A DNA stretch of 64,000 nucleotides. Origin: Streptococcus suis. GTDB lineage: Bacteria > Bacillota > Bacilli > Lactobacillales > Streptococcaceae. A model generated the notes under the pieces. The model was not told the origin of the DNA and ran no database searches. It worked only from the letters and a program-made list of their open reading frames with translations. Shown one piece after another: positions 7,651-61,178 of the stretch. Numbering within the stretch: position 1 is the stretch's first letter; each line of letters begins with the position of its first letter. The stretch lies in contig NZ_CP082205.1 of NCBI RefSeq assembly GCF_019856455.1, forward strand, positions 1,674,001 to 1,738,000. Reading direction: 5' to 3'. The translations under genes were made by a program, and so were the position numbers.

Positions 7651-10600
7651 ATGGAACGGAAACAAAGATTTTCTATAAAAAAATTATCAATCGGTGTTGT
7701 GTCCATTTGTATCGGATTTGCATTTCTTACTCAAGGAAACAGTACTGTAGCAGCCGCTGAAAATAGTGTTGAAGTTATTATTAGCAACGCAACAGGCGAA
7801 GAGGAAACAATCCCTACTCAACCTACGGAAACTCCTAACAATAGAGAGAGCATTCAAAATACGGAAACTACTACTCAAGAAGAAGTCACCGTGAATAATA
7901 CGGTCGAGGGACAAACTGATACCGAAAAAAGCACCCGTACGGAACAAGCGGTACCTGAATCTACCACTAGTCAGAATGACCACCTTGCAAATACCGAAGA
8001 CACCACTACAACTTCATCTTCAACAGAGAGCTCAGTAAATGAAGTAGAGTTCCCAACGGAAACTACTGCTCTTTCCTCCCCTGAATCATCCCCTAAAATA
8101 GAAACTATCGATGCCAGTTTAAAAGCAGAGCAACCTAACACAAGCGAAGGAACAACAGCCCTTCGTGCCGCAACCAATACAAGCCCCACAACTACTGTGA
8201 CTGGAAATGATACTGCTATCCAAGCAATTGAAAATGGAAGCATCACTCCGTCTAAAACGATAGCATCTCTAAACGCTGAAGAGAAACAAACTCTTAACAA
8301 CCTTATTCTCACAAACTTTGAAACTAGCGCTGATAAAGTAGCTTTACTAGATGTTGTAAAACCTAAAGAGAGTTTAAGTATTTCTGATTTAACAAAATAT
8401 TTTGTTCCGCTTATAAAACAACTAAAGTCGGATCCTAATTACAAGCACTTGACTGACCAAGAAAGGTCCGCTGAAGCAACAAAATTAGCGCTGATTGAAG
8501 CAAACAAAAACCTCTACGAAGATGCGAGTATTGAAGCTCTTGCGCCTGAGGCGAAAAACACTTTCCAACAACTACTTGCATTTAACAATGGTCAGCTACT
8601 TACGGAAAAATCAGGGCTTACAGTTGAAACTCTAAAAAATAATCTTAGTCAACTGTATCGTGGTGTCCTATACCTCCAGCAACAATACTCCTTTGAAAAA
8701 GATTTACCACAAACTCTTGTCTTTACTCCCCACACAATCGGTAATATCCAAGCTGACCAGACAAGTGCCTATGACCGATTGATGGCTTATGGTGGTCACA
8801 TTACTGATAAACGGTCACTTGCCTTAAATCTTAATCAAATACAATTCAATAACCGTATGATTGGTCAATACACTGGTACCAAATCTACTGCTGAATTAGT
8901 TAAAAAAATAGCTCAATCTAAAGGAAAAGATGTAAATAGCTACTTTACAGAACAGTCCCAAGCTTTGATTGGAACAAGCCCAAACATCTCCATCTTTGAA
9001 TTATTAAAAACCAATAAACCAGAATATATCCTCCCTGTCCTCTCTCAAGGTAGAGGTGTTTACCTTGCAGGTACTAGCAACAGTTTGACTCTTGGGCTTT
9101 TAGATTCGTATACAGACCTGTACCCTGAGTTGAAAAACTACAGCAAGGAACGTGGGGTACAACAACCTACATCTACTTTCTTCGAAAAAATCCTTACCTA
9201 CCAAGAAAATTGGTTGACTTTCCTTAACTCTGCTAAAAAAGATAGTACAACTATTCCATTTACACTAGCAGTCGATACGATGAATGTCTATAACGAGACC
9301 ACCAAAGCACACACTTGGTCACCTAACGAAGGCACTTCTGCACATTCTGCGGTACTCAACTTCTTCTCTCCAATGAATCTCTGGGAAAATTATGTTCGTT
9401 CAGGAGTTGGACTAGGAGGTGTTGCAAACGGTGAAAATATGATTAAAGCCTACGAGACACGCTTTATGCACAGTAACCTTTCAGGTGTCGCACTGTTCAC
9501 TCACGAAATGACTCATACAAACGATGAGGCTAGGTTGTTCGGTGGAACTTATCGAAAAGAAGGTCGACGAGCTGGTCAAGGACCTGAAGTGTATGCACGA
9601 GGTTTATTTGAAGTAATTGATAATACACAAAACGGTGTTCCTGGTGAGTACAAACCTGTCTTTAATTTGAATACCGCTCTCACTATTGCTGACAGTCCAA
9701 ATCGTACTCAAGCATTAACACCTCAAACTTCTACAGAAAAGTTAGCAAATTACACAAAAAATCTTGTTGATTTAGTCGCTTATTTGGAAGCTGTTGAAGC
9801 GAGGGTTGCTTTAAAATCCCTAGCAGAGAATGAATTAGCTACTTATTTCAATAAGGTCGTCCAAGTACCTCGCAATACCACTTCTAACACTAGCACGACA
9901 ACCACCAGTCTCCCTTCTACCAACGATGCATTTCTCCCCTATGGGCAGTTGACGGTTGCTTCACTTACTAAACCAACTAGCATCAATGATTTGGTTGACC
10001 AAGATGCAGTCAGTGGTCAGTTTATCCCTCGTGGAATTTCCCCTATCCTAACGGAATTAAGTCATAACCAATATGATCATGTCCCACTTCTAGAAAGCTT
10101 CTACGGTGCTTCAGAAGCTCCAAGTGGCAATAATACCGTTGGAGATATCTCTTTCAAGCGACATGCATATGAAATATTGGCATGGAAAGGCTGGGATGCC
10201 TTTATAAGTTACATTAGTAACAGATACAATAGCGACTCAGAAGCTTTTAAAGCAATCTTAGGAAACGAATATTCAGATTGGGCTAGTTTCAAAAAAGCGC
10301 AATATAAACGGTTAGAAGATAAGGAACCGGTTAATCAATTGTGGCAAACTAGCCAATTGGAGAAAGAGTTAGAAACAGCTATAAAAGCTGATTTAGCAGT
10401 ATTAACCACCTATCGAAATTCAATTAACAGTCTACTTAACAGTCGTTCCACTGTTACTCAAACGCAGTTAGACCAAGCAGCTCAAAAAGCTTCAGTTGCT
10501 CGGTTAGCAACTAATGTCCGTAAAGTTAAATTAGATATTCTAAACAAAGCTCTACAGTTTAACAATCTAGAAGCTAGTATCTTTGAAGCACCAAAACAAT

Positions 10601-13600
10601 CTGACATTATCTATGTAAAAAATGGCGGAAACGGACAAGGACTGACAGAAGATACCCCTATGGGAAGTTTGGCTGAAGCCTTGCAGAAAGCTACAGATGG
10701 TACTATCATCAAACTGGTCGGCAATGCCACCGAGCGAACTCCACTCGTCATCAATAAAGCAGTTACCATTGAGAGTGATAGCAGTGAAAATGCGATTATT
10801 TTTAATGAGAGTATTCAAATTTCAAATAACGTTACCCTACGTAATTTAAGTATTCATGCTTTAACAGAAAGCAATGTCCCTGGAAACATCTACATAGATG
10901 GTCAAGTGACAATGGATCATGTATCCACTCTTATATCCAATCGTCAAACTGATAAACGCCCTAGTCTTATCATAGGTTCATCAGCAGATACAACTGATAA
11001 GCGTGAATCCAGTTTGAAAATTTTAAATACAAATGAAACTGTTTTCGATAAGATGACCGTCCAAAATGCTGCAGATATTGCGATTGCAAATGGTACACAA
11101 ATTAAAAATGGTGTCGAAGTGACTACACCTTCTCCTGTTACAATCACTTCTGAAAGTAATCAGGTCAATAAATTCCAAGCACCTGAAACCAATCAAGTAA
11201 CCCTTATTTTCAATGGTAGCAAGGCAAGTAATGTAGAATTAAACCATATCGCAAATCTTATTTTAAAACATCCTTCTTCTATCTCGCTAAGCAGTCAATC
11301 GATCACACCAATCCAACAAACCTTAGCTATCGAAAATGGTAGCCGACTTAACTTGGGTGATTTAGCTGTGCATTTCCAATCTCTTACAGGTGATGGAATG
11401 TTGGAATTCACTGACAAGGGGCAATTAAGTATACAGGATGTATCTGGACATGCCACAATCCATTTTAAACGTAATGATATGGATTTTTCAGCATCAGATG
11501 GTAAAACATTTGTCGCTGTTGCTTCTAAAAAAGATGGGCTCTCTGTCAAGTTAAAACCGCTAGAACTCAATCTAGAAATAGATGAAAATGGAAACTACAT
11601 CTACCATCAGCCTTACTCTGCTAGCTACTATTTCGATACCGAAGATAGCAGAGTCTTACCAAATGAGATTTACGACTTGCAACCAGATGATAAGGAAAGT
11701 CTTGACCAAGCTATCCCAGCACCAGAAACAATTACTGTAGAAGTGCCAGATGGCGAAGGAAAATGGGTATTTGATAAGTGGGAATTGGATTCTAATAGTA
11801 CTACAAAACGACAATTCTATACCGGTTACTGGCGCTATACGACTTCCCCTCAAACAACAGTTCGGTACGAGGAGGTGCCTTTCGCTGTCGTTTACCAAGC
11901 GGATGAAAACAAGGCAGCAGGCGAAACGACAGTCATCTTCAGCGGAAAACTCGGTAAAGTGAAAATCACTGAAACTGAGGGCGCTGAGCCGATTAGAGAA
12001 ATCGTAGAAAACCCTCAAAACAAGATTGTTTCAGTCGGTACTATGACAGAAGTCACCAACACTATCTTGGCATTCAAAACCGTTAAACTAGACGATGACC
12101 AATTGCCAAAAGGACAAACGAAAGTCGTTAAGAAAGGTAAAGACGGGCGGGAAACAACCACAACGACCTATACCCTAGACACCGCTACAGGACTGATTAC
12201 CTCTAGCACTAAGACGGAAAGAGTTGACCCTGTTGACGAGGTGGTAAGTGTCGGAACAAAAATTATCCCTCAAACAACAGTTCGGTACGAGGAGGTGCCT
12301 TTCGCTGTCGTTTACCAAGCGGATGAAAACAAGGTGGCAGGCGAAACGACAGTCATCTTCAGCGGAAAACTCGGTAAAGTGAAAATCACTGAAACTGAGG
12401 GCGCTGAGCCGATTAGAGAAATCGTAGAAAACCCTCAAAACAAGATTGTTTCAGTCGGTACTATGACAGAAGTCACCAACACTATCTTGGCATTCAAAAC
12501 CGTTAAACTAGACGATGACCAATTGCCAAAAGGACAAACGAAAGTCGTTAAGAAAGGTAAAGACGGGCGGGAAACAACCACGACGACCTATACCCTAGAC
12601 ACCGCTACAGGACTGATTACCTCTAGCACTAAGACGGAAAGAGTTGACCCTGTTGACGAGGTGGTAAGTGTCGGAACAAAAATTATCCCTCAAACAACAG
12701 TTCGGTACGAGGAGGTGCCTTTCGCTGTCGTTTACCAAGCGGATGAAAACAAGGTGGCAGGCGAAACGACAGTCATCTTCAGCGGAAAACTCGGTAAAGT
12801 GAAAATCACTGAAACTGAGGGCGCTGAGCCGATTAGAGAAATCGTAGAAAACCCTCAAAACAAGATTGTTTCAGTCGGTACTATGACAGAAGTCACCAAC
12901 ACTATCTTGGCATTCAAAACCGTTAAACTAGACGATGACCAATTGCCAAAAGGACAAACGAAAGTCGTTAAGAAAGGTAAAGACGGGCGGGAAACAACCA
13001 CGACGACCTATACCCTAGACACCGCTACAGGACTGATTACCTCTAGCACTAAGACGGAAAGAGTTGACCCTGTTGACGAAGTGGTAAGTGTCGGAACGAA
13101 AATTATCCCTCAAACAACAGTTCGGTACGAGGAGGTGCCTTTCGCTGTCGATTACCAAGCGGATGAAAACAAGGTGGCAGGCGAAACGACAGTCATCTTC
13201 AGCGGAAAACTCGGTAAAGTGAAAATCACTGAAACTGAGGGCGCTGAGCCGATTAGAGAAATCGTAGAAAAACCTCAAAACAAGATTGTTTCAGTCGGTA
13301 CTATGACGGAAGTCACCAACACTATCTTGGCATTCAAAACCGTTAAACTAGACGATGACCAATTGCCAAAAGGACAAACGAAAGTCGTTAAGAAAGGTAA
13401 AGACGGGCGGGAAACAACCACGACGACCTATACCCTAGACACCGCTACAGGACTGATTACCTCTAGCACTAAGACGGAAAGAGTTGACCCTGTTGACGAA
13501 GTGGTAAGTGTCGGAACGAAAATTATCTCTCAAACAACAGTTCGGTACGAGGAGGTGCCTTTCGCTGTCGATTACCAAGCGGATGAAAACAAGGTGGCAG

Positions 13601-14958
13601 GCGAAACGACAGTCATCTTCAGCGGAAAACTCGGTAAAGTGAAAATCACTGAAACTGAGGGCGCTGAGCCGATTAGAGAAATCGTAGAAAACCCTCAAAA
13701 CAAGATTATTTCAGTCGGTACTATGACGGAAGTCACCAACACTATCTTGGCATTCAAAACCGTTAAACTAGACGATGACCAATTGCCAAAAGGACAAACG
13801 AAAGTCGTTAAGAAAGGTAAAGACGGGCGGGAAACAACCACGACGACCTATACCCTAGACACCGCTACAGGACTGATTACCTCTAGCACTAAGACGGAAA
13901 GACTTGACCCTGTTGACGAAGTGGTAAGTGTCGGAACGAAAATTATCCCTCAAACAACAGTTCGGTACGAGGAGGTGCCTTTCGCTGTCGATTACCAAGC
14001 GGATGAAAACAAGGTGGCAGGCGAAACGACAGTCATCTTCAGCGGAAAACTCGGTAAAGTGAAAATCACTGAAACTGAGGGCGCTGAGCCGATTAGAGAA
14101 ATCGTAGAAAACCCTCAAAACAAGATTATTTCAGTCGGTACTATGACGGAAGTCACCAACACTATCTTGGCATTCAAAACCGTTAAACTAGACGATGACC
14201 AATTGCCAAAAGGACAAACGAAAGTCGTTAAGCAAGGTAAAGACGGGCGGGAAACAACCACAACGACCTATACCCTAGACACCGCTACAGGACTGATTAC
14301 CTCTAGCACTAAGACGGAAAGAGTTGACCCTGTTGACGAGGTGGTAAGTGTCGGGATTTTAGAGACCAAAGTTACAGATACTGCCCCTGAGCAGGTTATA
14401 AAACCTGAACTAAAATGGACTACAACAATTGTTCCGATTCCTTTCCAAACGAGATACATAGTGGATAATCAATTGAAGCTTGGTGAAGAGATCATCCTTG
14501 TTCCAGGAAGAAATGGTCAACGACAAGTTATTACTCTTGTAAATGGCTCAGTCGTTGGAAGAAACGATGAAGAAATCATTTCTGATATTGTTCTCCTCGA
14601 TCCGATCGAACAAATTATCAAAATCGGAAACCGCAGTACCGATAAAGCAATAGATCTCCCAAGCAAAAAAGAAAAAACAGATATTTCAAATCTTGGACTA
14701 GCATTACCAAATAATAAAGTAAGCTCTACTCCAATTAAACTCGCAGAGACACCAAAATCAATTCAATATCTGACTGACAGGAAGTATGATTCAACAGTTT
14801 CTCCGAGCCAGCTTCAACAAACCAATGGCGTAATATTACCAAAAACAGGTGAACAAAAAGAAAACTTCCTTGCCAGATTGGGATACATTTCCCTATTATC
14901 TTTAGAATTTTGTTGGGCTATCTCAACTCTTCTCAAAAATAAAAGGAAGAGTAAATAA
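7651..14958 (+). CDS. LPxTG-anchored M26-family zinc metalloprotease with G5 repeats
   Basis: 2435 aa; AAAAGGGG lies just before ATG 7651. Domains in order: a YSIRK-like signal (FSIKKLSIGVVSI, residues 7-19); a Thr/Ser/Glu-rich stretch to about 170; an M26 catalytic region with HEMTH at 618-622 and a downstream RRAGQGPEVYARG glutamate segment; a beta-helix-like region from about 985 (YVKNGGNGQG); six 140-aa repeats at about 1400-2235; a wall-sorting signal LPKTGE, hydrophobic segment and KNKRKSK tail. It therefore sits on the wall with a classical C-terminal anchor, whereas pneumococcal ZmpB/ZmpC carry an N-terminal LPxTG. The substrate is unknown; S. suis M26 proteases have been named IgA1 protease and ZmpC. 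Transcribed alone from the promoter at 7588, ending at the hairpin at 14977. Confidence 0.93.
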   Translation: MERKQRFSIKKLSIGVVSICIGFAFLTQGNSTVAAAENSVEVIISNATGEEETIPTQPTETPNNRESIQNTETTTQEEVTVNNTVEGQTDTEKSTRTEQAVPESTTSQNDHLANTEDTTTTSSSTESSVNEVEFPTETTALSSPESSPKIETIDASLKAEQPNTSEGTTALRAATNTSPTTTVTGNDTAIQAIENGSITPSKTIASLNAEEKQTLNNLILTNFETSADKVALLDVVKPKESLSISDLTKYFVPLIKQLKSDPNYKHLTDQERSAEATKLALIEANKNLYEDASIEALAPEAKNTFQQLLAFNNGQLLTEKSGLTVETLKNNLSQLYRGVLYLQQQYSFEKDLPQTLVFTPHTIGNIQADQTSAYDRLMAYGGHITDKRSLALNLNQIQFNNRMIGQYTGTKSTAELVKKIAQSKGKDVNSYFTEQSQALIGTSPNISIFELLKTNKPEYILPVLSQGRGVYLAGTSNSLTLGLLDSYTDLYPELKNYSKERGVQQPTSTFFEKILTYQENWLTFLNSAKKDSTTIPFTLAVDTMNVYNETTKAHTWSPNEGTSAHSAVLNFFSPMNLWENYVRSGVGLGGVANGENMIKAYETRFMHSNLSGVALFTHEMTHTNDEARLFGGTYRKEGRRAGQGPEVYARGLFEVIDNTQNGVPGEYKPVFNLNTALTIADSPNRTQALTPQTSTEKLANYTKNLVDLVAYLEAVEARVALKSLAENELATYFNKVVQVPRNTTSNTSTTTTSLPSTNDAFLPYGQLTVASLTKPTSINDLVDQDAVSGQFIPRGISPILTELSHNQYDHVPLLESFYGASEAPSGNNTVGDISFKRHAYEILAWKGWDAFISYISNRYNSDSEAFKAILGNEYSDWASFKKAQYKRLEDKEPVNQLWQTSQLEKELETAIKADLAVLTTYRNSINSLLNSRSTVTQTQLDQAAQKASVARLATNVRKVKLDILNKALQFNNLEASIFEAPKQSDIIYVKNGGNGQGLTEDTPMGSLAEALQKATDGTIIKLVGNATERTPLVINKAVTIESDSSENAIIFNESIQISNNVTLRNLSIHALTESNVPGNIYIDGQVTMDHVSTLISNRQTDKRPSLIIGSSADTTDKRESSLKILNTNETVFDKMTVQNAADIAIANGTQIKNGVEVTTPSPVTITSESNQVNKFQAPETNQVTLIFNGSKASNVELNHIANLILKHPSSISLSSQSITPIQQTLAIENGSRLNLGDLAVHFQSLTGDGMLEFTDKGQLSIQDVSGHATIHFKRNDMDFSASDGKTFVAVASKKDGLSVKLKPLELNLEIDENGNYIYHQPYSASYYFDTEDSRVLPNEIYDLQPDDKESLDQAIPAPETITVEVPDGEGKWVFDKWELDSNSTTKRQFYTGYWRYTTSPQTTVRYEEVPFAVVYQADENKAAGETTVIFSGKLGKVKITETEGAEPIREIVENPQNKIVSVGTMTEVTNTILAFKTVKLDDDQLPKGQTKVVKKGKDGRETTTTTYTLDTATGLITSSTKTERVDPVDEVVSVGTKIIPQTTVRYEEVPFAVVYQADENKVAGETTVIFSGKLGKVKITETEGAEPIREIVENPQNKIVSVGTMTEVTNTILAFKTVKLDDDQLPKGQTKVVKKGKDGRETTTTTYTLDTATGLITSSTKTERVDPVDEVVSVGTKIIPQTTVRYEEVPFAVVYQADENKVAGETTVIFSGKLGKVKITETEGAEPIREIVENPQNKIVSVGTMTEVTNTILAFKTVKLDDDQLPKGQTKVVKKGKDGRETTTTTYTLDTATGLITSSTKTERVDPVDEVVSVGTKIIPQTTVRYEEVPFAVDYQADENKVAGETTVIFSGKLGKVKITETEGAEPIREIVEKPQNKIVSVGTMTEVTNTILAFKTVKLDDDQLPKGQTKVVKKGKDGRETTTTTYTLDTATGLITSSTKTERVDPVDEVVSVGTKIISQTTVRYEEVPFAVDYQADENKVAGETTVIFSGKLGKVKITETEGAEPIREIVENPQNKIISVGTMTEVTNTILAFKTVKLDDDQLPKGQTKVVKKGKDGRETTTTTYTLDTATGLITSSTKTERLDPVDEVVSVGTKIIPQTTVRYEEVPFAVDYQADENKVAGETTVIFSGKLGKVKITETEGAEPIREIVENPQNKIISVGTMTEVTNTILAFKTVKLDDDQLPKGQTKVVKQGKDGRETTTTTYTLDTATGLITSSTKTERVDPVDEVVSVGILETKVTDTAPEQVIKPELKWTTTIVPIPFQTRYIVDNQLKLGEEIILVPGRNGQRQVITLVNGSVVGRNDEEIISDIVLLDPIEQIIKIGNRSTDKAIDLPSKKEKTDISNLGLALPNNKVSSTPIKLAETPKSIQYLTDRKYDSTVSPSQLQQTNGVILPKTGEQKENFLARLGYISLLSLEFCWAISTLLKNKRKSK
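11848..14354 (+). repeat. Six tandem 420-bp G5-domain repeats
   Basis: Copies start at 11848, 12268, 12688, 13108, 13528 and 13948, with an exact 420-bp period and only scattered single-base differences. Each unit encodes 140 aa with two G5-like segments (VRYEEVPFAV and NTILAFKTVKLDDDQLPKGQ). The first three copies read AVVYQ and the last three AVDYQ, so two subfamilies lie in blocks. G5 domains are linked to glycan or zinc-dependent adhesion and stalk formation. Such identity favours slipped-strand or recombination change in copy number. Confidence 0.95.
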
Positions 14959-48798: not shown

Positions 48799-49911
48799 TC
48801 ATTCCCCAACTTCATTTCTCACACATTGCAAGGCCGCACCGATAACCTGGTGCATATCGTAGTAACGATAATGACCAAGACGCCCACCGAATATAACGTT
48901 CTCTTGTTGTTCTGCGAGGCGTTTATAAGCAGTATAAAGTTTGTTGTTACGATCATTGTTCACTGGATAATACGGCTCATCGCCTCGTTTCCAGGTCTTC
49001 GAATACTCACGTGTAATAATGGTTTTCGGTTGTGTACCAAATTCGAAATGTTTGTGTTCGATAATACGAGTAAATGGCGTTTCACTATCTGTGTAGTTCA
49101 CAACTGCATTCCCTTGATAGTTTTCCATATCCAACACTTCTGTCTCAAATCGAAGGCTACGATATTCCAATTCACCAAGTTGGTAATCAAAGAACTCGTC
49201 AATCATTCCTGTAAAGACAATCTTCGGATAGGTAGCTAAATAGTCTTCCTTATTGGCAAAGAAATCAACATTTGTCTCAACATCAATATTCTCATGATCC
49301 AACATTTTTTCAACAATCTGCGTGTAACCGCCGATTGGAATACCTTGATATGTGTCGTTGAAATAGTTATTATCATAAGTTAAACGCACGGGTAAACGAC
49401 GGATGATAAAGGCAGGTAACTCCGTACATGGTTTTTCCCATTGTTTCTCGGTATATGACTTAATCAATTTTTCATAGATGTCTGTACCAACTAGTGAGAT
49501 GGCTTGTTCTTCCAAGTTCTCAGGCGTTTTTCCTCCCAAAACAGCTCGTTGCTCTGCAATCTTCGCTTCTGCTTCAGCAGGGGTCACCACGCCCCACAGT
49601 TTATTGAAAGTATTCATGTTGAATGGAAGATTGTAGATTTCACCTTTGTAGTTGGCGACTGGTGTATTTGTATAGCGGTTGAACTCCGCAAACTGATTCA
49701 CATAATCCCAAATTTCTTTTTCAGAAGTATGGAAAATATGTGCGCCATATTCATGGACTTGAATACCTTCTACTTCTTTGGTATAGATGTTACCCGCAAT
49801 GTGTTCTCGTTTTTCGATAACCTTTATTTTTTTACCCTTTTTAGCTGCCTCGTGAGCAAAGACCGCTCCGAACAGACCTGCACCAACAACTAAGTAGTCG
49901 TAATGTTTCAT
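48799..49911 (-). CDS. glf: UDP-galactopyranose mutase
   Basis: 370 aa. FAD-binding start YDYLVVGAGLFGAVFAHEAAKKG, then HEYGAHIFHTSEKEIWDYV, PFNMNTFNKLWG, EKQWEKPCTELPAFIIRRLPVR and a C-terminal GRLGHYRYYDMHQVIG. It converts UDP-galactopyranose to UDP-galactofuranose for the capsule. AGGAGG is 14 nt before the ATG, further than usual. It is the last capsule-type gene, separated from wzx by the rpn genes. Confidence 0.96.
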   Translation of the reverse strand: MKHYDYLVVGAGLFGAVFAHEAAKKGKKIKVIEKREHIAGNIYTKEVEGIQVHEYGAHIFHTSEKEIWDYVNQFAEFNRYTNTPVANYKGEIYNLPFNMNTFNKLWGVVTPAEAEAKIAEQRAVLGGKTPENLEEQAISLVGTDIYEKLIKSYTEKQWEKPCTELPAFIIRRLPVRLTYDNNYFNDTYQGIPIGGYTQIVEKMLDHENIDVETNVDFFANKEDYLATYPKIVFTGMIDEFFDYQLGELEYRSLRFETEVLDMENYQGNAVVNYTDSETPFTRIIEHKHFEFGTQPKTIITREYSKTWKRGDEPYYPVNNDRNNKLYTAYKRLAEQQENVIFGGRLGHYRYYDMHQVIGAALQCVRNEVGE

Positions 49912-49929
49912 ATATTTTGTATTTTCCTC

Positions 49930-50187
49930 CTAGAACTGATGTTCTTGCGAGAATTGAGTCAACTGTTCCGAAGTTAGTCCTGTTATTTCTAACACATCCT
50001 CTATGTCAAGACCTCTAGCTAATAATTTTTGTGCAACATCTAAACTTTTTTGTAGACTTCCTTCTTCTAGGCCTTTCTCTAGACCTTCGGCTCTTCCTTC
50101 TTCCTTTCCACGATTTCTACCACGTATAAAAGAACTTTCCAATTCTCCAAAGTGGTTGGAAGCATTACGCAACCATTGATCTACCAT
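49930..50187 (-). CDS. Stand-alone Rpn C-terminal domain (candidate antitoxin paralogue)
   Basis: 85 aa from ATG 50187 with AGGAGG 8 nt upstream. The whole protein matches the last 77 residues of the Rpn nuclease next to it: MVDQWLRNASNHFGELESS, RGRNRGKEEGR, and LEITGLTSEQL. It differs by an 8-residue insertion of GL/EG-type repeats and a few substitutions. The nuclease core is absent. It starts at the residue that follows the internal ribosome-binding site in the parent, so the duplication carried a ready-made start. In E. coli, C-terminal fragments of Rpn made from internal starts inhibit the full toxin; this copy may do the same. A degraded duplicate is the other option. Confidence 0.8.
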   Translation of the reverse strand: MVDQWLRNASNHFGELESSFIRGRNRGKEEGRAEGLEKGLEEGSLQKSLDVAQKLLARGLDIEDVLEITGLTSEQLTQFSQEHQF

Positions 50188-50199
50188 TTTCACTACCTC

Positions 50200-50433
50200 C
50201 TAAAACTGATGGTCTTGTGAAAGGGAAGCCAACTGTTCTGAAGTTAAGCCGGTGATTTCTAAAACATCTTCTATGCCAAGACCTCTGTTTAATAAGCGCT
50301 GAGCAACTTCTAAACTTTTTTGTATACTACCTTCTAATCGACCTTCTTCCTTTCCACGATTTCTACCACGTATAAAAGAACTTTCCAATTCCCCAAAATG
50401 ATTGGAGGCATTACGCAACCATTGATCTACCAT
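50200..50433 (-). CDS. Predicted internal product of rpn (RpnS-like, 77 aa)
   Basis: Inside rpn, AGAGGAGGA (50441-50448 area) lies 7 nt before an in-frame ATG at codon 226. This would give a separate 77-aa C-terminal protein. The same start is used by the stand-alone copy at 49930-50187. Prediction by analogy with E. coli RpnS; not a separate gene. Confidence 0.6.
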   Translation of the reverse strand: MVDQWLRNASNHFGELESSFIRGRNRGKEEGRLEGSIQKSLEVAQRLLNRGLGIEDVLEITGLTSEQLASLSQDHQF

Positions 50434-51108
50434 TTCGATTTCCTCCTCTGTCCATGTATTTCTGTTTAGCAGATTCTCTGCCTTTTCAATAATATCTGAT
50501 GTCGATTGACTAAATTCTCTATTTGCAAAAAATTCAATCCATTGGCGTTGATTTTTCCCAAGTTGACCCTTACGAAACTTTTTCAGCTCAATGATAACCA
50601 TTTCAAATGGTTTCTTTAATTCTTCCTGATCACCAAATGGTAATTCTAAGATTTGACTGCTATCTTTTTCAGTCATTACAAAACTGTGAATAGGTTTTTC
50701 ATCATCGAAATACTTACTCGCTACTAAAGCAATCGAATAAATCGGAGAAATTTTATTATACATATCATGCGTCTGCGTGACCTTCTCACGAATATTGGGC
50801 AAGTCCTTCACCAAATGTTGGCAGGAATAAGTCCACAAACGCTTGATAAAACCATTTTGATAGGCAACTTGAATCTCGATAATGACCTGTGTCCCATCTT
50901 CTAACCGAGCCAAAATATCTACGGTTGTACTAAAGTGTCTAGTCCTTTCTTTTTTCACATCCGCGATAGTTCCATTCAATATCTGAACAGATTTGGGACG
51001 AAAACCTAAAAAGGTATCTATAAAGTCAATGGTAATTTCGTGGTCATTGAAAATCTTTTTTGCAATAATATCAGCCATAGGGCTGACTGCCTGACGGCGT
51101 TTTGTCAT
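50200..51108 (-). CDS. Rpn family PD-(D/E)XK nuclease
   Basis: 302 aa with GGAGG before ATG 51108. The PD-(D/E)XK core shows D64 (TTVDILARL) and E78-x-Q80 (IIEIQVAYQ), the E-x-Q form of this family. A C-terminal helical domain (226-302) has the variable RNRGKEEGRLEGS stretch. These proteins are called recombination-promoting nuclease or putative transposase, and E. coli members act as toxic anti-phage proteins. TATAAT at 51177-51182 (minus) suggests its own promoter. It is inserted between wzx and glf. Confidence 0.88.
   Translation of the reverse strand: MTKRRQAVSPMADIIAKKIFNDHEITIDFIDTFLGFRPKSVQILNGTIADVKKERTRHFSTTVDILARLEDGTQVIIEIQVAYQNGFIKRLWTYSCQHLVKDLPNIREKVTQTHDMYNKISPIYSIALVASKYFDDEKPIHSFVMTEKDSSQILELPFGDQEELKKPFEMVIIELKKFRKGQLGKNQRQWIEFFANREFSQSTSDIIEKAENLLNRNTWTEEEIEMVDQWLRNASNHFGELESSFIRGRNRGKEEGRLEGSIQKSLEVAQRLLNRGLGIEDVLEITGLTSEQLASLSQDHQF
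50441..50448 (-). promoter_or_regulatory. Internal ribosome-binding site within rpn
   Basis: Consensus-strength Shine-Dalgarno (AGAGGAGG) in the codons for Thr-Glu-Glu-Glu, 7 nt before ATG 50433. Confidence 0.65.
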
Positions 51109-51213
51109 CTCTATCCTCCAAATAATAAGATTGAGAAATACTCTCTACTTATTTATTCGGAAAATATTCTAGTTATATTATAGCATGACATCTAAATTTT
51201 TTCTAGTAACAGC

Positions 51214-51310
51214 TCAATAACAAAGTATATCGAAAACTTTTCCCATACTACCTTCTGGAAAAGTGAAGTTGTCTACAAGGAATTCTAATCTACCATGTGT
51301 TATATCATAG
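51214..51310 (-). pseudogene. Protein-like remnant upstream of rpn
   Basis: A minus frame without an ATG at its head reads YDITHGRLEFLVDNFTF and PEGSMGKVFDIL before a stop. Neighbouring frames contain short protein-like pieces (QVGHYDCIGFSKDLGV). This suggests a decayed gene in 51183-51440. No family recognised. Confidence 0.3.
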
Positions 51311-51440
51311 AAAAACTAAGAATTACCATTTATTTTAAATGAAACTAATCCGTTTCTAAGCCAATAATATATCGTCATTTATACACCCAAATCTTTACTA
51401 AATCCAATACAGTCATAGTGCCCAACTTGACGAACCAATT

Positions 51441-51464
51441 AAGTAGTTGTACATTCAACTACTT
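51441..51464. terminator. Hairpin after the 60-aa ORF
   Basis: AAGTAGTTG and CAACTACTT, 9-bp perfect arms, 6-nt loop; only a short AATTGG follows on the minus strand, so terminator strength is doubtful. Confidence 0.45.
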
Positions 51465-51466
51465 CA

Positions 51467-51649
51467 CTAAGTCAGATGGTCATAGTGCAGTACCTTATCC
51501 AAAATAGTTTCTAATATTTCTTGAATGATAGATTGGAAGAATGTGAGTTCCACTTTTCCGAGACGAATTTTCATCAGGATATCATTTCTATTTTTTCTTT
51601 CAAAGCGATGCGATTGGGGAACAGTCAATGGGACGATAGGGTGTGACAT
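51467..51649 (-). CDS. Small ORF, possible IS66-type accessory protein remnant
   Basis: 60 aa from ATG 51649 with GGAGG 6 nt upstream. The segment MKIRLGKVELTFFQSIIQEILETILDKVL has the strand-then-leucine-helix pattern found at the end of IS66 TnpA (OrfA) proteins, but I cannot name it with certainty. A hairpin (51441-51464) follows. No other IS66 genes are intact nearby. Confidence 0.4.
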   Translation of the reverse strand: MSHPIVPLTVPQSHRFERKNRNDILMKIRLGKVELTFFQSIIQEILETILDKVLHYDHLT

Positions 51650-51744
51650 AAAAATCCTCCAGTTTTGTTTTTATAACAGTATACTGGAGGAGGGAGTAGT
51701 TGGATAGATGCCTTGTTATTGATCGGTTACGGTGTTAGTCAATT

Positions 51745-53130
51745 TTATCTGACTATCTTATTTATAAGTGTGCAAATAAAAAATTTATTTAAATATACTA
51801 TACATATAAGAAGTAAAAACTGAATCAATAACATTATCTCTAAATCAAAAAATAACAATATCAGCTGTAAAATTATTAAAAGAATAGATCCATAGATCTG
51901 TGTCCAATCAATCTTTACATCAACGATATCTTTGGTTCCATAATATCTTAAAAGAAATATAACAAAAAAACTTATTGCATTCGAAAGTGCTGCACCAACC
52001 AAACCTAAAAATGTTATTAAAACGATATTCAATAGAAAATTTACTAATCCTCCATACATAGAAGTTCGCAGTATTCCTTCTGTTTTTTTAGATACAATAT
52101 AGTACGTTGCAAAATAATCTGAGAAAGCAGAAAAAATTGTACCTAATGTTAACAAAGGGACAAGATACCAAGCAGTAAAATAATCCGAAGAAAAAAGAAT
52201 ACTAAATAAAGGTTTTATTAACATTGTTAATAGGGAAGAGCTAATAAAAAGCATGGAGGCTAAGGATTTGAAGACCGTTGTATAATAATCAACAGCTGTT
52301 GTACTTCTTTCTTCTTCAACTGCAGAAATCTGCCAAGCCTGTATAAATACTTGATTTACAGTGCTTAATAAAGACGGAAATTTACTGGCAACTACGAATA
52401 AACCTGTCCAATAAGCTCCTGATAAATATAAAACTAAGTAACGACTTGAAACAGTCATTAACCACCACATAATAGAATTAGGAACTAGTGGTATAGAATA
52501 AATTAAAAGTATTCGTATATCTTGCTTTGTTACAAATTTTGGTGAAATATCATGACATGCATCTGAACCAAAAAATAAAATGATATCAGATAGAGAGTAG
52601 GCAATAATCTGAGCCCAAAAAAATCCATCTAGCCCTTTTCGAAGTTGAACAATGAATATGTAGCTGAACATGGCAATAAATATTGATAAAAGTATACCAT
52701 TTAGAGAGAATAACTGAACTTTCCCCTTAGAACGTGCATACTGACCAAAAAGATTTTGAAAAAAAGCTAGAGCTAAAAGAATATAAAAATAATGAATGTA
52801 AATCTTAAAAGATGTTAACATCAATATTGGCAAAAAGACTAAAGCTATACAAAAACCAAAAATTCCAATGAAAATGGAATTAGAAATAACTTTCTCCTTA
52901 TCATAACTACTATCCAAACCAAAGCGTAAAACCGCGTCATAAATGCTCAAAAAAACTACTGGAGCTATGAGGTTTGTAATAGTTGTTAGCATCGTGTCTG
53001 AAATTCCGAACTGCTCAGCTGAGAGGTAATGAGCATAAAAGGGAACTAATAAAAAAGTGATAAACTTACTCCCGAAATTACCTATTGCAAATAATATTGA
53101 ATTATTTAATAATTTTTTATAATTCCCCAT
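51745..53130 (-). CDS. wzx: Wzx-type polysaccharide flippase
   Basis: 461 aa with about 14 hydrophobic segments and the MOP-superfamily start NNSILFAIGNFGSKFITFLLVPFYAHYLSAEQFG. GAGG is 10 nt before the ATG. It moves the undecaprenyl-linked capsule repeat unit across the membrane. Very AT-rich, like the glycosyltransferase genes that follow upstream on the same strand. The name rests on topology and on the neighbouring wzy. Confidence 0.9.
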   Translation of the reverse strand: MGNYKKLLNNSILFAIGNFGSKFITFLLVPFYAHYLSAEQFGISDTMLTTITNLIAPVVFLSIYDAVLRFGLDSSYDKEKVISNSIFIGIFGFCIALVFLPILMLTSFKIYIHYFYILLALAFFQNLFGQYARSKGKVQLFSLNGILLSIFIAMFSYIFIVQLRKGLDGFFWAQIIAYSLSDIILFFGSDACHDISPKFVTKQDIRILLIYSIPLVPNSIMWWLMTVSSRYLVLYLSGAYWTGLFVVASKFPSLLSTVNQVFIQAWQISAVEEERSTTAVDYYTTVFKSLASMLFISSSLLTMLIKPLFSILFSSDYFTAWYLVPLLTLGTIFSAFSDYFATYYIVSKKTEGILRTSMYGGLVNFLLNIVLITFLGLVGAALSNAISFFVIFLLRYYGTKDIVDVKIDWTQIYGSILLIILQLILLFFDLEIMLLIQFLLLICIVYLNKFFICTLINKIVR

Positions 53131-60461: not shown

Positions 60462-61178
60462 TTAATCCTCAATCCTAAAATACTCTAAATAGTCCTTAAA
60501 TCGATCTTGTGCGGCTAGACAAGTATCTAATAAGAAACCATTCTGTTCTCCCCACTCGGCTAAGCCACGATAGTAAAAATACTTCATGTCATCTCCAATG
60601 ATAAAGGGGACATGTCCATGTTTGAGACATTCTTTGAACATAATGAGTCGACCTACTCGCCCGTTACCATCTTGGAAGGGATGGATGCGTTCAAATCGAA
60701 CATGAAAGTCAAGAATATCCTCAAAGGAAGTAGGTGATAGAGCATGATAATTTCTAAGCAATTCTTGCATGTCTGACTCCACATACTCGGGTAGAGTCGT
60801 TTCACGACCGCCGACTTCATTTGGGTATAATTTATAATCTCCGATTTGGAACCATGACTTCCGAGAATCGGAAGTACCACTCTTCAAGATAGCATGAATC
60901 TCCTTTATCCAAGTTTCATTCAAGTCATCTTGAAAGCTAACTAAGAGAAAATCAAAAGCCGTAAAATGATTGATCGTTTCAATAATATCATCCACCTTTA
61001 TGGTTGGATTGTCTTCAAAACCAATCGTATTGGTCTCATAGATATACCGTGTCTGGTCATGCGTCAGTTGACTCCCCTCTATATGGTTTGAGTTGAAAGC
61101 CAGCTCTATCTGAACCTTATGGTAAAGACCACCTTTGATTCTGTTTTCTTTTTCTCTTACTAACCTATGACCTAACAT
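60462..61178 (-). CDS. Fic-domain protein with N-terminal inhibitory motif
   Basis: 238 aa. The catalytic loop HPFQDGNGRVGR starts at His166, fitting the HxFx(D/E)GNGRxxR consensus. Near the N-terminus S30-N-H-I-E34-G35 matches the (S/T)xxxE(G/N) inhibitory helix, making this a class II, self-inhibited AMP-transferase. AGAGG lies before ATG 61178. It sits between the capsule dehydratase and aminotransferase genes, preceded by a hairpin (61205-61242). It has no obvious capsule role; the target is unknown. Confidence 0.9.
   Translation of the reverse strand: MLGHRLVREKENRIKGGLYHKVQIELAFNSNHIEGSQLTHDQTRYIYETNTIGFEDNPTIKVDDIIETINHFTAFDFLLVSFQDDLNETWIKEIHAILKSGTSDSRKSWFQIGDYKLYPNEVGGRETTLPEYVESDMQELLRNYHALSPTSFEDILDFHVRFERIHPFQDGNGRVGRLIMFKECLKHGHVPFIIGDDMKYFYYRGLAEWGEQNGFLLDTCLAAQDRFKDYLEYFRIED

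What the first reader, a model, noticed from the sequence alone, without database searches (positions are those of the whole stretch)
49930..51108. Rpn nuclease with an internal antitoxin start and a duplicated stand-alone antitoxin
Seen: rpn carries a consensus Shine-Dalgarno (AGAGGAGG) 7 nt before an in-frame ATG at codon 226, and the next gene, after a 12-nt gap, is a separate copy of exactly this C-terminal part with its own AGGAGG and ATG at the homologous residue. The two differ mainly by an 8-residue insertion in the GR/EG-rich stretch. Known: E. coli Rpn proteins are toxic anti-phage nucleases inhibited by C-terminal fragments made from internal starts. Inference: this locus shows both an intragenic and a detached antitoxin, so duplication may have freed the antitoxin to diverge in length.
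Basis: partly seen in the sequence, partly recalled or inferred. Interest (0 to 1): 0.85.

Follow-up and report, generated by a model that had tools for sequence, protein, structure and literature searches.

The report
Rpn toxin with stored antitoxin alleles
A bacterial DNA-cutting toxin gene carries its own antidote inside its tail and is followed by a second antidote gene that is not a copy of that tail but a different version of it, one that serves as the toxin's own tail in another strain; this suggests that such loci store alternative tails.

Summary
In detail: a 302-aa Rpn nuclease with a strong internal start at codon 226, then, after 12 nt, a stand-alone tail gene 8 residues longer. 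Internal and detached Rpn antitoxins are already published for E. coli (Zhong 2023), so the anatomy is of a known kind. But the detached gene is not a copy of this tail; it is another tail allele. A relative (L012) with 99.7% identical nuclease DNA carries nearly the window's detached tail as its own toxin tail and has no detached gene. S. suis YS56 has a different toxin tail but a 258/258-nt identical detached gene. E. coli rpnE/ypaA shows the same: two strains with identical nuclease DNA, where one's toxin tail ends like the other's orphan. In the Streptococcus loci fetched, 47 of 90 rpn genes have 1-3 intact orphans; 9 of 63 match their neighbour's length (6.75 expected by chance), although in a published test of RpnC the number of repeats had to match. 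Best reading: rpn loci are tail-cassette arrays; the first cassette is fused to the nuclease, later ones are displaced or reserve alleles aimed at other tail types. The evolutionary part is well supported; function is inferred.

The parts
51177..51205 (-). promoter-like site (TAGAAA-17-TATAAT, TG before -10) upstream of rpnL
   Evidence: 10 of 12 matches; 11 sites found in the region, 6.9 expected, so a consensus match only
50200..51108 (-). rpnL: Rpn-family PD-(D/E)XK nuclease, 302 aa, with nested antitoxin
   Evidence: PF12784 60.9 bits; TIGR01784 96 bits, cut-off 52.1; D13, D64, E78, Q80, R90 invariant in 25 sequences
50434..51108 (-). nuclease part (225 codons), 99.7% identical in DNA to L012
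50442..50447 (-). AGGAGG of the internal start, inside codons TEEE
50200..50433 (-). resident tail / intragenic antitoxin RpnS, type A1, 77 aa
50188..50199 (-). 12-nt linker GAGGTAGTGAAA between rpnL stop and orphan start; in L071, L014 and L073 the linker is GAGGAAATCGAA, like the leader of the internal start
   Evidence: window and L071 linkers 66.7% identical
50196..50201 (-). AGGAGG of the orphan, overlapping the rpnL stop codon
49930..50187 (-). detached (orphan) rpnS, type A2, 85 aa, 8 residues longer than the resident tail; 258 of 258 nt identical in S. suis YS56
48799..49911 (-). flank: glf (UDP-galactopyranose mutase), starts 18 nt after the orphan stop
51745..53130 (-). flank: polysaccharide flippase-like gene; the rpn locus lies in a capsule-type gene cluster

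Best explanation
This is an Rpn toxin-antitoxin locus organised as a tail-cassette array. The nuclease is fused to a first cassette (type A1) whose internal start makes the cognate antitoxin. Behind it stands a second cassette (type A2) with its own Shine-Dalgarno and ATG, which is the former, or an alternative, tail of the toxin. SHOWN by sequence: modular tails, near-identity of this orphan to a toxin tail elsewhere, different tails on unchanged nucleases, length mismatch with the neighbour. INFERRED: the cassettes move by recombination in the conserved first ~90 nt / leader; the orphan is translated; it does not neutralise its A1 neighbour but toxins with an A2 tail, including the one the cell would make right after the array recombines and the orphan becomes the tail. 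Because the antitoxin is nested in the tail, one recombination event changes toxin and antitoxin together, and the pre-made orphan could make that change safe.
For: Window vs L012: nuclease 99.7% of 675 nt (100% in protein); L012 tail = window orphan (100% over 93 nt, 95.4% over 153 nt, one repeat fewer), not the window resident tail (94.6%, 78.0%); L012 has no orphan and glf follows directly. Window vs YS56 (L071): nuclease 87.0%, resident 3' tails 55.3%, orphan 258/258 nt identical. Nearest nucleases by path, L012 and P0082, carry A2, so A2 was probably resident before A1. Types A1, A2 and B occur both as resident (24, 6, 10 of 43; 3 untyped) and as orphan (23, 26, 24 of 75; 2 untyped). L009 orphan 2 is 100% identical to resident tails P0141, P0146 and P0147. 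E. coli: L115 (one cassette) vs L108 (two): nuclease identical over 729 nt, last 75 nt of tail 100% to the L108 orphan, 68.1% to its resident. Length: 9 of 63 intact Streptococcus orphans match the neighbour, 6.75 expected; 9 of 9 E. coli two-cassette loci read mismatch, some of them the same allele. Zhong 2023: one extra repeat on either side abolishes neutralisation of RpnC.
Against: The matching rule was tested with one toxin (RpnC) only; it may not hold here. Nine of 47 residents do have one length-matched orphan (L009, L085 and L098 within arrays of two or three). Orphans are on average closer to their own resident than to the average one of the group (last-30 identity 0.724 vs 0.553; above it in 53 of 63), so within-locus duplication or conversion also happens. 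L115's tail is 65 aa, the L108 orphan 73 aa, and L012's tail is one repeat shorter than the window orphan, so neither is a bare promotion of that orphan. Deletion between direct repeats would by itself leave the orphan's 3' end on the nuclease, so one-cassette strains do not prove displacement. Only 43 of 204 detached tails have a >=95% identical toxin tail in the set compared. Only 4 of 45 orphans have a length-matched, >=85% identical paralogous toxin in the same genome. No expression, toxicity or binding data.
Confidence: 0.6

Rival explanations
1. Extra dose of antitoxin: the orphan is a duplicated antitoxin that helps to neutralise the neighbouring RpnL, and repeat number matters less here than in E. 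coli RpnC.
For: Own Shine-Dalgarno and start; first 31 codons 94.6% identical in DNA and identical in protein; pN/pS resident vs orphan 0.19 in the window, 0.205 pooled over 59 pairs, below 1 in all 59; within-locus similarity above the group average.
Against: Length matches the neighbour no more often than chance (9 of 63, 6.75 expected, P 0.22); last 30 residues closest to a foreign toxin in 49 of 63; published loss of neutralisation with one repeat difference.
Confidence: 0.2
2. Recombination by-product: direct-repeat tails are duplicated, exchanged and lost by unequal crossing-over; orphans are transient passengers without function.
For: Repeated one/two-cassette changes (at least 5 on a weakly supported tree of 15 E. 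coli rpnE alleles); chance-level length matching. Low pN/pS could have accrued while each allele was still a toxin tail.
Against: ATG at the homologous place in 66 of 75 tail-like downstream frames and AGGAGG before 52 of 75; 3101 of 5426 E. coli genomes show the two-cassette junction over >=80% of the query; YpaA protein is detected in E. coli (Zhong 2023).
Confidence: 0.17
3. The orphan is a regulator: its C-terminal helices (HTH-like) bind DNA or phage factors rather than RpnL.
For: Zhong 2023 mention HTH relatedness; some E. coli records name the orphan 'Rpn/YhgA-type helix-turn-helix domain-containing protein'.
Against: The tail of the RpnL model matches RpnA-S, a published antitoxin. No operator search was made.
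Confidence: 0.05

Closest known systems
E. coli rpnE-ypaA (rpnE_S) and rpnC-rpnC_S (Zhong et al. 2023, PMC10327210)
   Same: Nuclease with internal antitoxin start and a detached downstream antitoxin; E. coli rpnE-ypaA also has a 12-nt linker and, found here, a heterotypic, length-mismatched orphan. The paper also notes fusion of the N-terminal domain with rpnS, and tandem arrays of rpn genes.
   Different: Abstract, introduction, Results, Discussion and legends (read; the supplement was not) do not describe the orphan as a different tail allele that is the toxin tail of other strains, chance-level length matching, or one rpn gene followed by two or three orphans.
Orphan immunity arrays of V. 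cholerae T6SS (Kirchberger 2017, PMC5361080; abstract and start of introduction read)
   Same: Old effectors replaced, old immunity genes kept downstream and matching those of other strains.
   Different: There toxin and immunity are separate genes and the toxin is injected; here the antitoxin is the toxin's own tail and the published E. coli toxins act inside the cell.
Tandem esaG immunity paralogues of T7SS (PMC9484751; search listing with start of abstract only)
   Same: Recombination between tandem antitoxin paralogues.
   Different: Antitoxin not nested in the toxin (recalled).

Membership tests
Rpn nuclease (RpnL) | PDDEXK_2 / TIGR01784 domain above curated cut-off | tested here: met
Rpn nuclease (RpnL) | Catalytic residues equivalent to RpnA D11, D63, E82, Q84, R94 | tested here: met
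   window D13, D64, E78, Q80, R90 invariant in 25 sequences; RpnA residues from passages of PMC5350276; equivalence assigned by me from motif and spacing
Rpn nuclease (RpnL) | Toxic DNA endonuclease | not testable with these tools
   bench only
Rpn nuclease (RpnL) | PD-(D/E)XK fold in a structure search | tested here: inconclusive
   model pLDDT 68.0; no PDB match at E<=0.001
Intragenic Rpn antitoxin (RpnS) | Internal start with ribosome-binding site | tested here: met
   (90 of 90)
Intragenic Rpn antitoxin (RpnS) | Fold of E. coli RpnA-S (7TH0) with variable four-residue repeats | tested here: met
   tail of the RpnL model on 7TH0: 1.0 A over 42 columns, prob 1.00, but E 0.096, rank 7; sequence E 1.3e-4, second to a repeat protein (8VD6) whose stretches fail singly; 4-residue steps in 58 of 63 pairs
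Intragenic Rpn antitoxin (RpnS) | Neutralises the toxin | not testable with these tools
   bench only
Cognate detached RpnS | Same repeat number as the neighbouring toxin | tested here: not met
   window orphan +8 residues; 54 of 63 differ in Streptococcus
Detached RpnS as simple duplicate of its upstream tail | Closest relative is the resident tail | tested here: not met
   window: L012 toxin tail is closer; over all: foreign closest in 49 of 63, own 11, tie 3
Orphan immunity array (CDI/T6SS-like) | Orphan equals immunity of other strains | tested here: met
   near-identity to toxin tails of other strains for the window orphan, L009 orphan 2 and E. coli L108
Orphan immunity array (CDI/T6SS-like) | Toxin delivered into neighbours | not tested
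   no export route was looked for

The most novel reading that the evidence does not exclude
Rpn loci are switchable toxin-specificity arrays: orphan antitoxins are stored tail alleles. Recombination promotes an orphan to toxin tail, which changes the toxin's partner specificity (and perhaps what activates it) together with its nested antitoxin in one step, and the already present orphan protein protects the cell during the change and against incoming rpn alleles.
Probability: 0.35. Interest if true: 0.85.

Novelty: new variant of a known kind. Interest (0 to 1): 0.62.

Why it matters
Detached Rpn antitoxins have been described as second copies. If they are stored tail alleles mismatched to their neighbours, then Rpn defence loci behave like immunity-gene arrays, and the puzzling variation in four-residue repeats becomes a kin-type code with a testable rule: each orphan should neutralise toxins with its tail, not its neighbour. 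The same pattern in Streptococcus and E. coli makes it testable in K-12.

Tried and rejected
Orphans serving paralogous toxins in the same genome: only 4 of 45 orphans in genomes with a same-group paralogue find a length-matched >=85% identical toxin tail, so rejected as the general role. RNA element at 49500-52000: no Rfam match at gathering scores. PADLOC: no match for RpnL; a 16-bit match of the orphan to 'putative invertase' was ignored. PD-(D/E)XK fold by structure search: inconclusive. Length matches are neither above nor below chance (P 0.22 / 0.88), so I claim no selection for mismatch. pN/pS is not used as proof of function, because divergence may predate detachment. Internal promoter before the internal start: the scan gave only 9-of-12 sites inside rpnL.

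Rows dropped and corrected: of 105 long RpnL-like frames, four are second views of contigs already held (L069, L072, L075, L067) and six begin too late in the protein; 95 were used in the final count. My first pass used 92, because a query with 34 extra N-terminal residues made L018, L021 and L076 look incomplete; one search puts them back (8 of 59 matches became 9 of 63, 44 of 87 residents with orphans became 47 of 90; the reading did not change). pN/pS and the same-genome test were not rerun and rest on the 59. L022, L062, L063, L065, L066, L077, L079 gave no long RpnL frame. Of 75 tail-like downstream frames, the 63 that begin with M and have >=55 aa were compared. The match list was cut, so some loci of the 29 genomes were not fetched. 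E. coli: I chose 14 of the 40 listed rpnE places (of 5371 records with a match) for variety, not at random, plus MG1655. One search listed 120 of 153 proteins.

Full report
OBSERVATION. On the minus strand, rpnL (51108-50200, 302 aa) has an ATG at codon 226 (50433), 8 nt after AGGAGG; a 12-nt gap follows its stop, then an 85-aa ORF (50187-49930) that begins at the homologous Met and has 8 extra residues in the charged repeat. The internal start is no chance: 90 of 90 RpnL frames of >=270 aa in the Streptococcus loci fetched have (A)GGAGG 8 nt before an ATG there. The window genome has three further rpn loci: one (L009) with three tandem detached tails with 4-nt ATGA overlaps, one (L010) with a detached tail 12 residues longer, one broken (L011).

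FAMILY. Rpn nuclease by PF12784 and TIGR01784, with D13, D64, E78, Q80, R90 invariant, which I equate with RpnA D11, D63, E82, Q84, R94 (passages of PMC5350276). The tail of the RpnL model superposes on E. coli RpnA-S, 7TH0, at 1.0 A over 42 columns (prob 1.00, E 0.096); the nuclease part found no PDB match at E<=0.001. The orphan model is a long helix 15-57 plus shorter helices, at low confidence (pLDDT 65.6).

WHAT IS KNOWN. Zhong et al. 2023 (PMC10327210; abstract, introduction, Results, Discussion and legends read, supplement not) show that RpnS made from an internal start neutralises RpnL, that E. coli rpnE and some rpnC have a detached second RpnS, that rpnS can be lost by deletion or by fusion to the N-terminal domain, and that one added repeat on either side abolishes neutralisation of RpnC. 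So intragenic plus detached antitoxin is known. The listings of five searches show no later study of Rpn antitoxins or of Rpn in Streptococcus in this library; later papers that merely hold the terms (such as PMC12707154 and PMC13400510) were not read.

THE ORPHAN IS A DIFFERENT ALLELE. S. suis tails of this family fall into at least three C-terminal types: A1 (window toxin), A2 (window orphan), B (labels mine). All three are found as toxin tails (24, 6, 10 of 43; 3 untyped) and as orphans (23, 26, 24 of 75; 2 untyped). YS56 (L071) has a nuclease 87.0% identical and a type B tail, yet its orphan is identical to the window's over 258 of 258 nt. In L071, L014 and L073 the linker after the toxin stop is GAGGAAATCGAA, the leader that precedes the internal start (one base different in L014 and L073), so the repeated unit is leader-ATG-tail-stop; the window's linker GAGGTAGTGAAA has drifted from it. 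The nearest nucleases to the window by tree path, L012 and P0082, both carry A2, which favours A2 as the earlier resident that A1 displaced; tree support is modest.

GENERALITY. Streptococcus: 29 of 118 genomes have matches. Of 90 resident tails in the loci fetched, 47 have intact orphans: 35 have one, 8 two, 4 three. Orphan and neighbour differ by a multiple of four residues (zero included) in 58 of 63 pairs; 9 match in length against 6.75 expected from random pairing within groups; 38 of 47 residents have no matched orphan. The last 30 residues of the orphan are closer to a foreign toxin in 49 of 63, to its own in 11, tied in 3; taking the best of many foreign tails favours 'foreign', but 27 of 63 pass a strict test (own <=0.80, some foreign >=0.90), and the average own identity (0.724) is still above the average foreign one (0.553). 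Of 204 detached S. suis-type tails, 43 have a >=95% identical toxin tail in the set compared. Outside Streptococcus, one Bacillota locus (L118) has two orphans with 3 and 6 IKEG repeats against 2 in its toxin tail. E. coli rpnE, 15 loci read: 9 two-cassette loci have toxin tail type 1 and orphan type 2, all of different length; 6 one-cassette loci have toxin tail type 2. L115 and L108 have identical nuclease DNA (729 nt); the last 75 nt of the L115 tail are 100% identical to the L108 orphan and 68.1% to the L108 resident, while the repeat numbers differ (65 against 73 aa). The type 1-linker junction covers >=80% of the query in 3101 of 5426 genomes, the type 2 end plus flank in 5364. One/two-cassette states change at least 5 times on a weakly supported tree of 15 nuclease alleles.

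HOW IT PROBABLY WORKS. Tail types differ in length and sequence, and published work on RpnC says that length must match. So the orphan most likely protects against A2-tailed toxin, not its neighbour: a toxin of earlier or sister cells that arrives by DNA uptake, or the one made when recombination fuses the orphan to the nuclease. Since antitoxin and tail are one sequence, such a fusion yields a matched pair at once. This functional part is inference. The plain alternatives, extra antitoxin dose and recombination by-product, remain open, and pN/pS of about 0.2 does not decide, since the divergence may have arisen while each allele was a toxin tail.

VERDICT. Observation confirmed; interpretation partly supported; known kind with a twist that I did not find described (heterotypic, mismatched tail-cassette arrays).

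Noticed in passing
L009:3088-3865 (own genome, C1:817087-817864): Three tandem orphan tails with 4-nt ATGA overlaps behind a second rpnL; the middle one is identical in protein to toxin tails of other S. suis strains.
   Followed up: yes
window 48799-53130: The rpn locus sits between a flippase-like gene and glf of a capsule-type cluster, on the same strand. DNA like the window's glf is found in the fetched stretches L012, L014, L022, L071, L073, L074 and L078, not in L013, L015 or L070.
   Followed up: partly
window 60462-61178: Fic/DOC-family protein encoded inside the capsule-type cluster.
   Followed up: no
window 7651-14958: 2435-aa YSIRK surface protein with an M26 peptidase region and 13 G5-domain stretches.
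   Followed up: no
L011 (own genome, C1:376879-377757): Rpn gene with three stops inside the match; a transposase-like frame, judged by eye, follows at L011 3345-4253.
   Followed up: no
P0080, P0081: UniRef names these S. suis Rpn proteins 'Glycyl-tRNA synthetase subunit alpha', evidently a mislabel.
   Followed up: no
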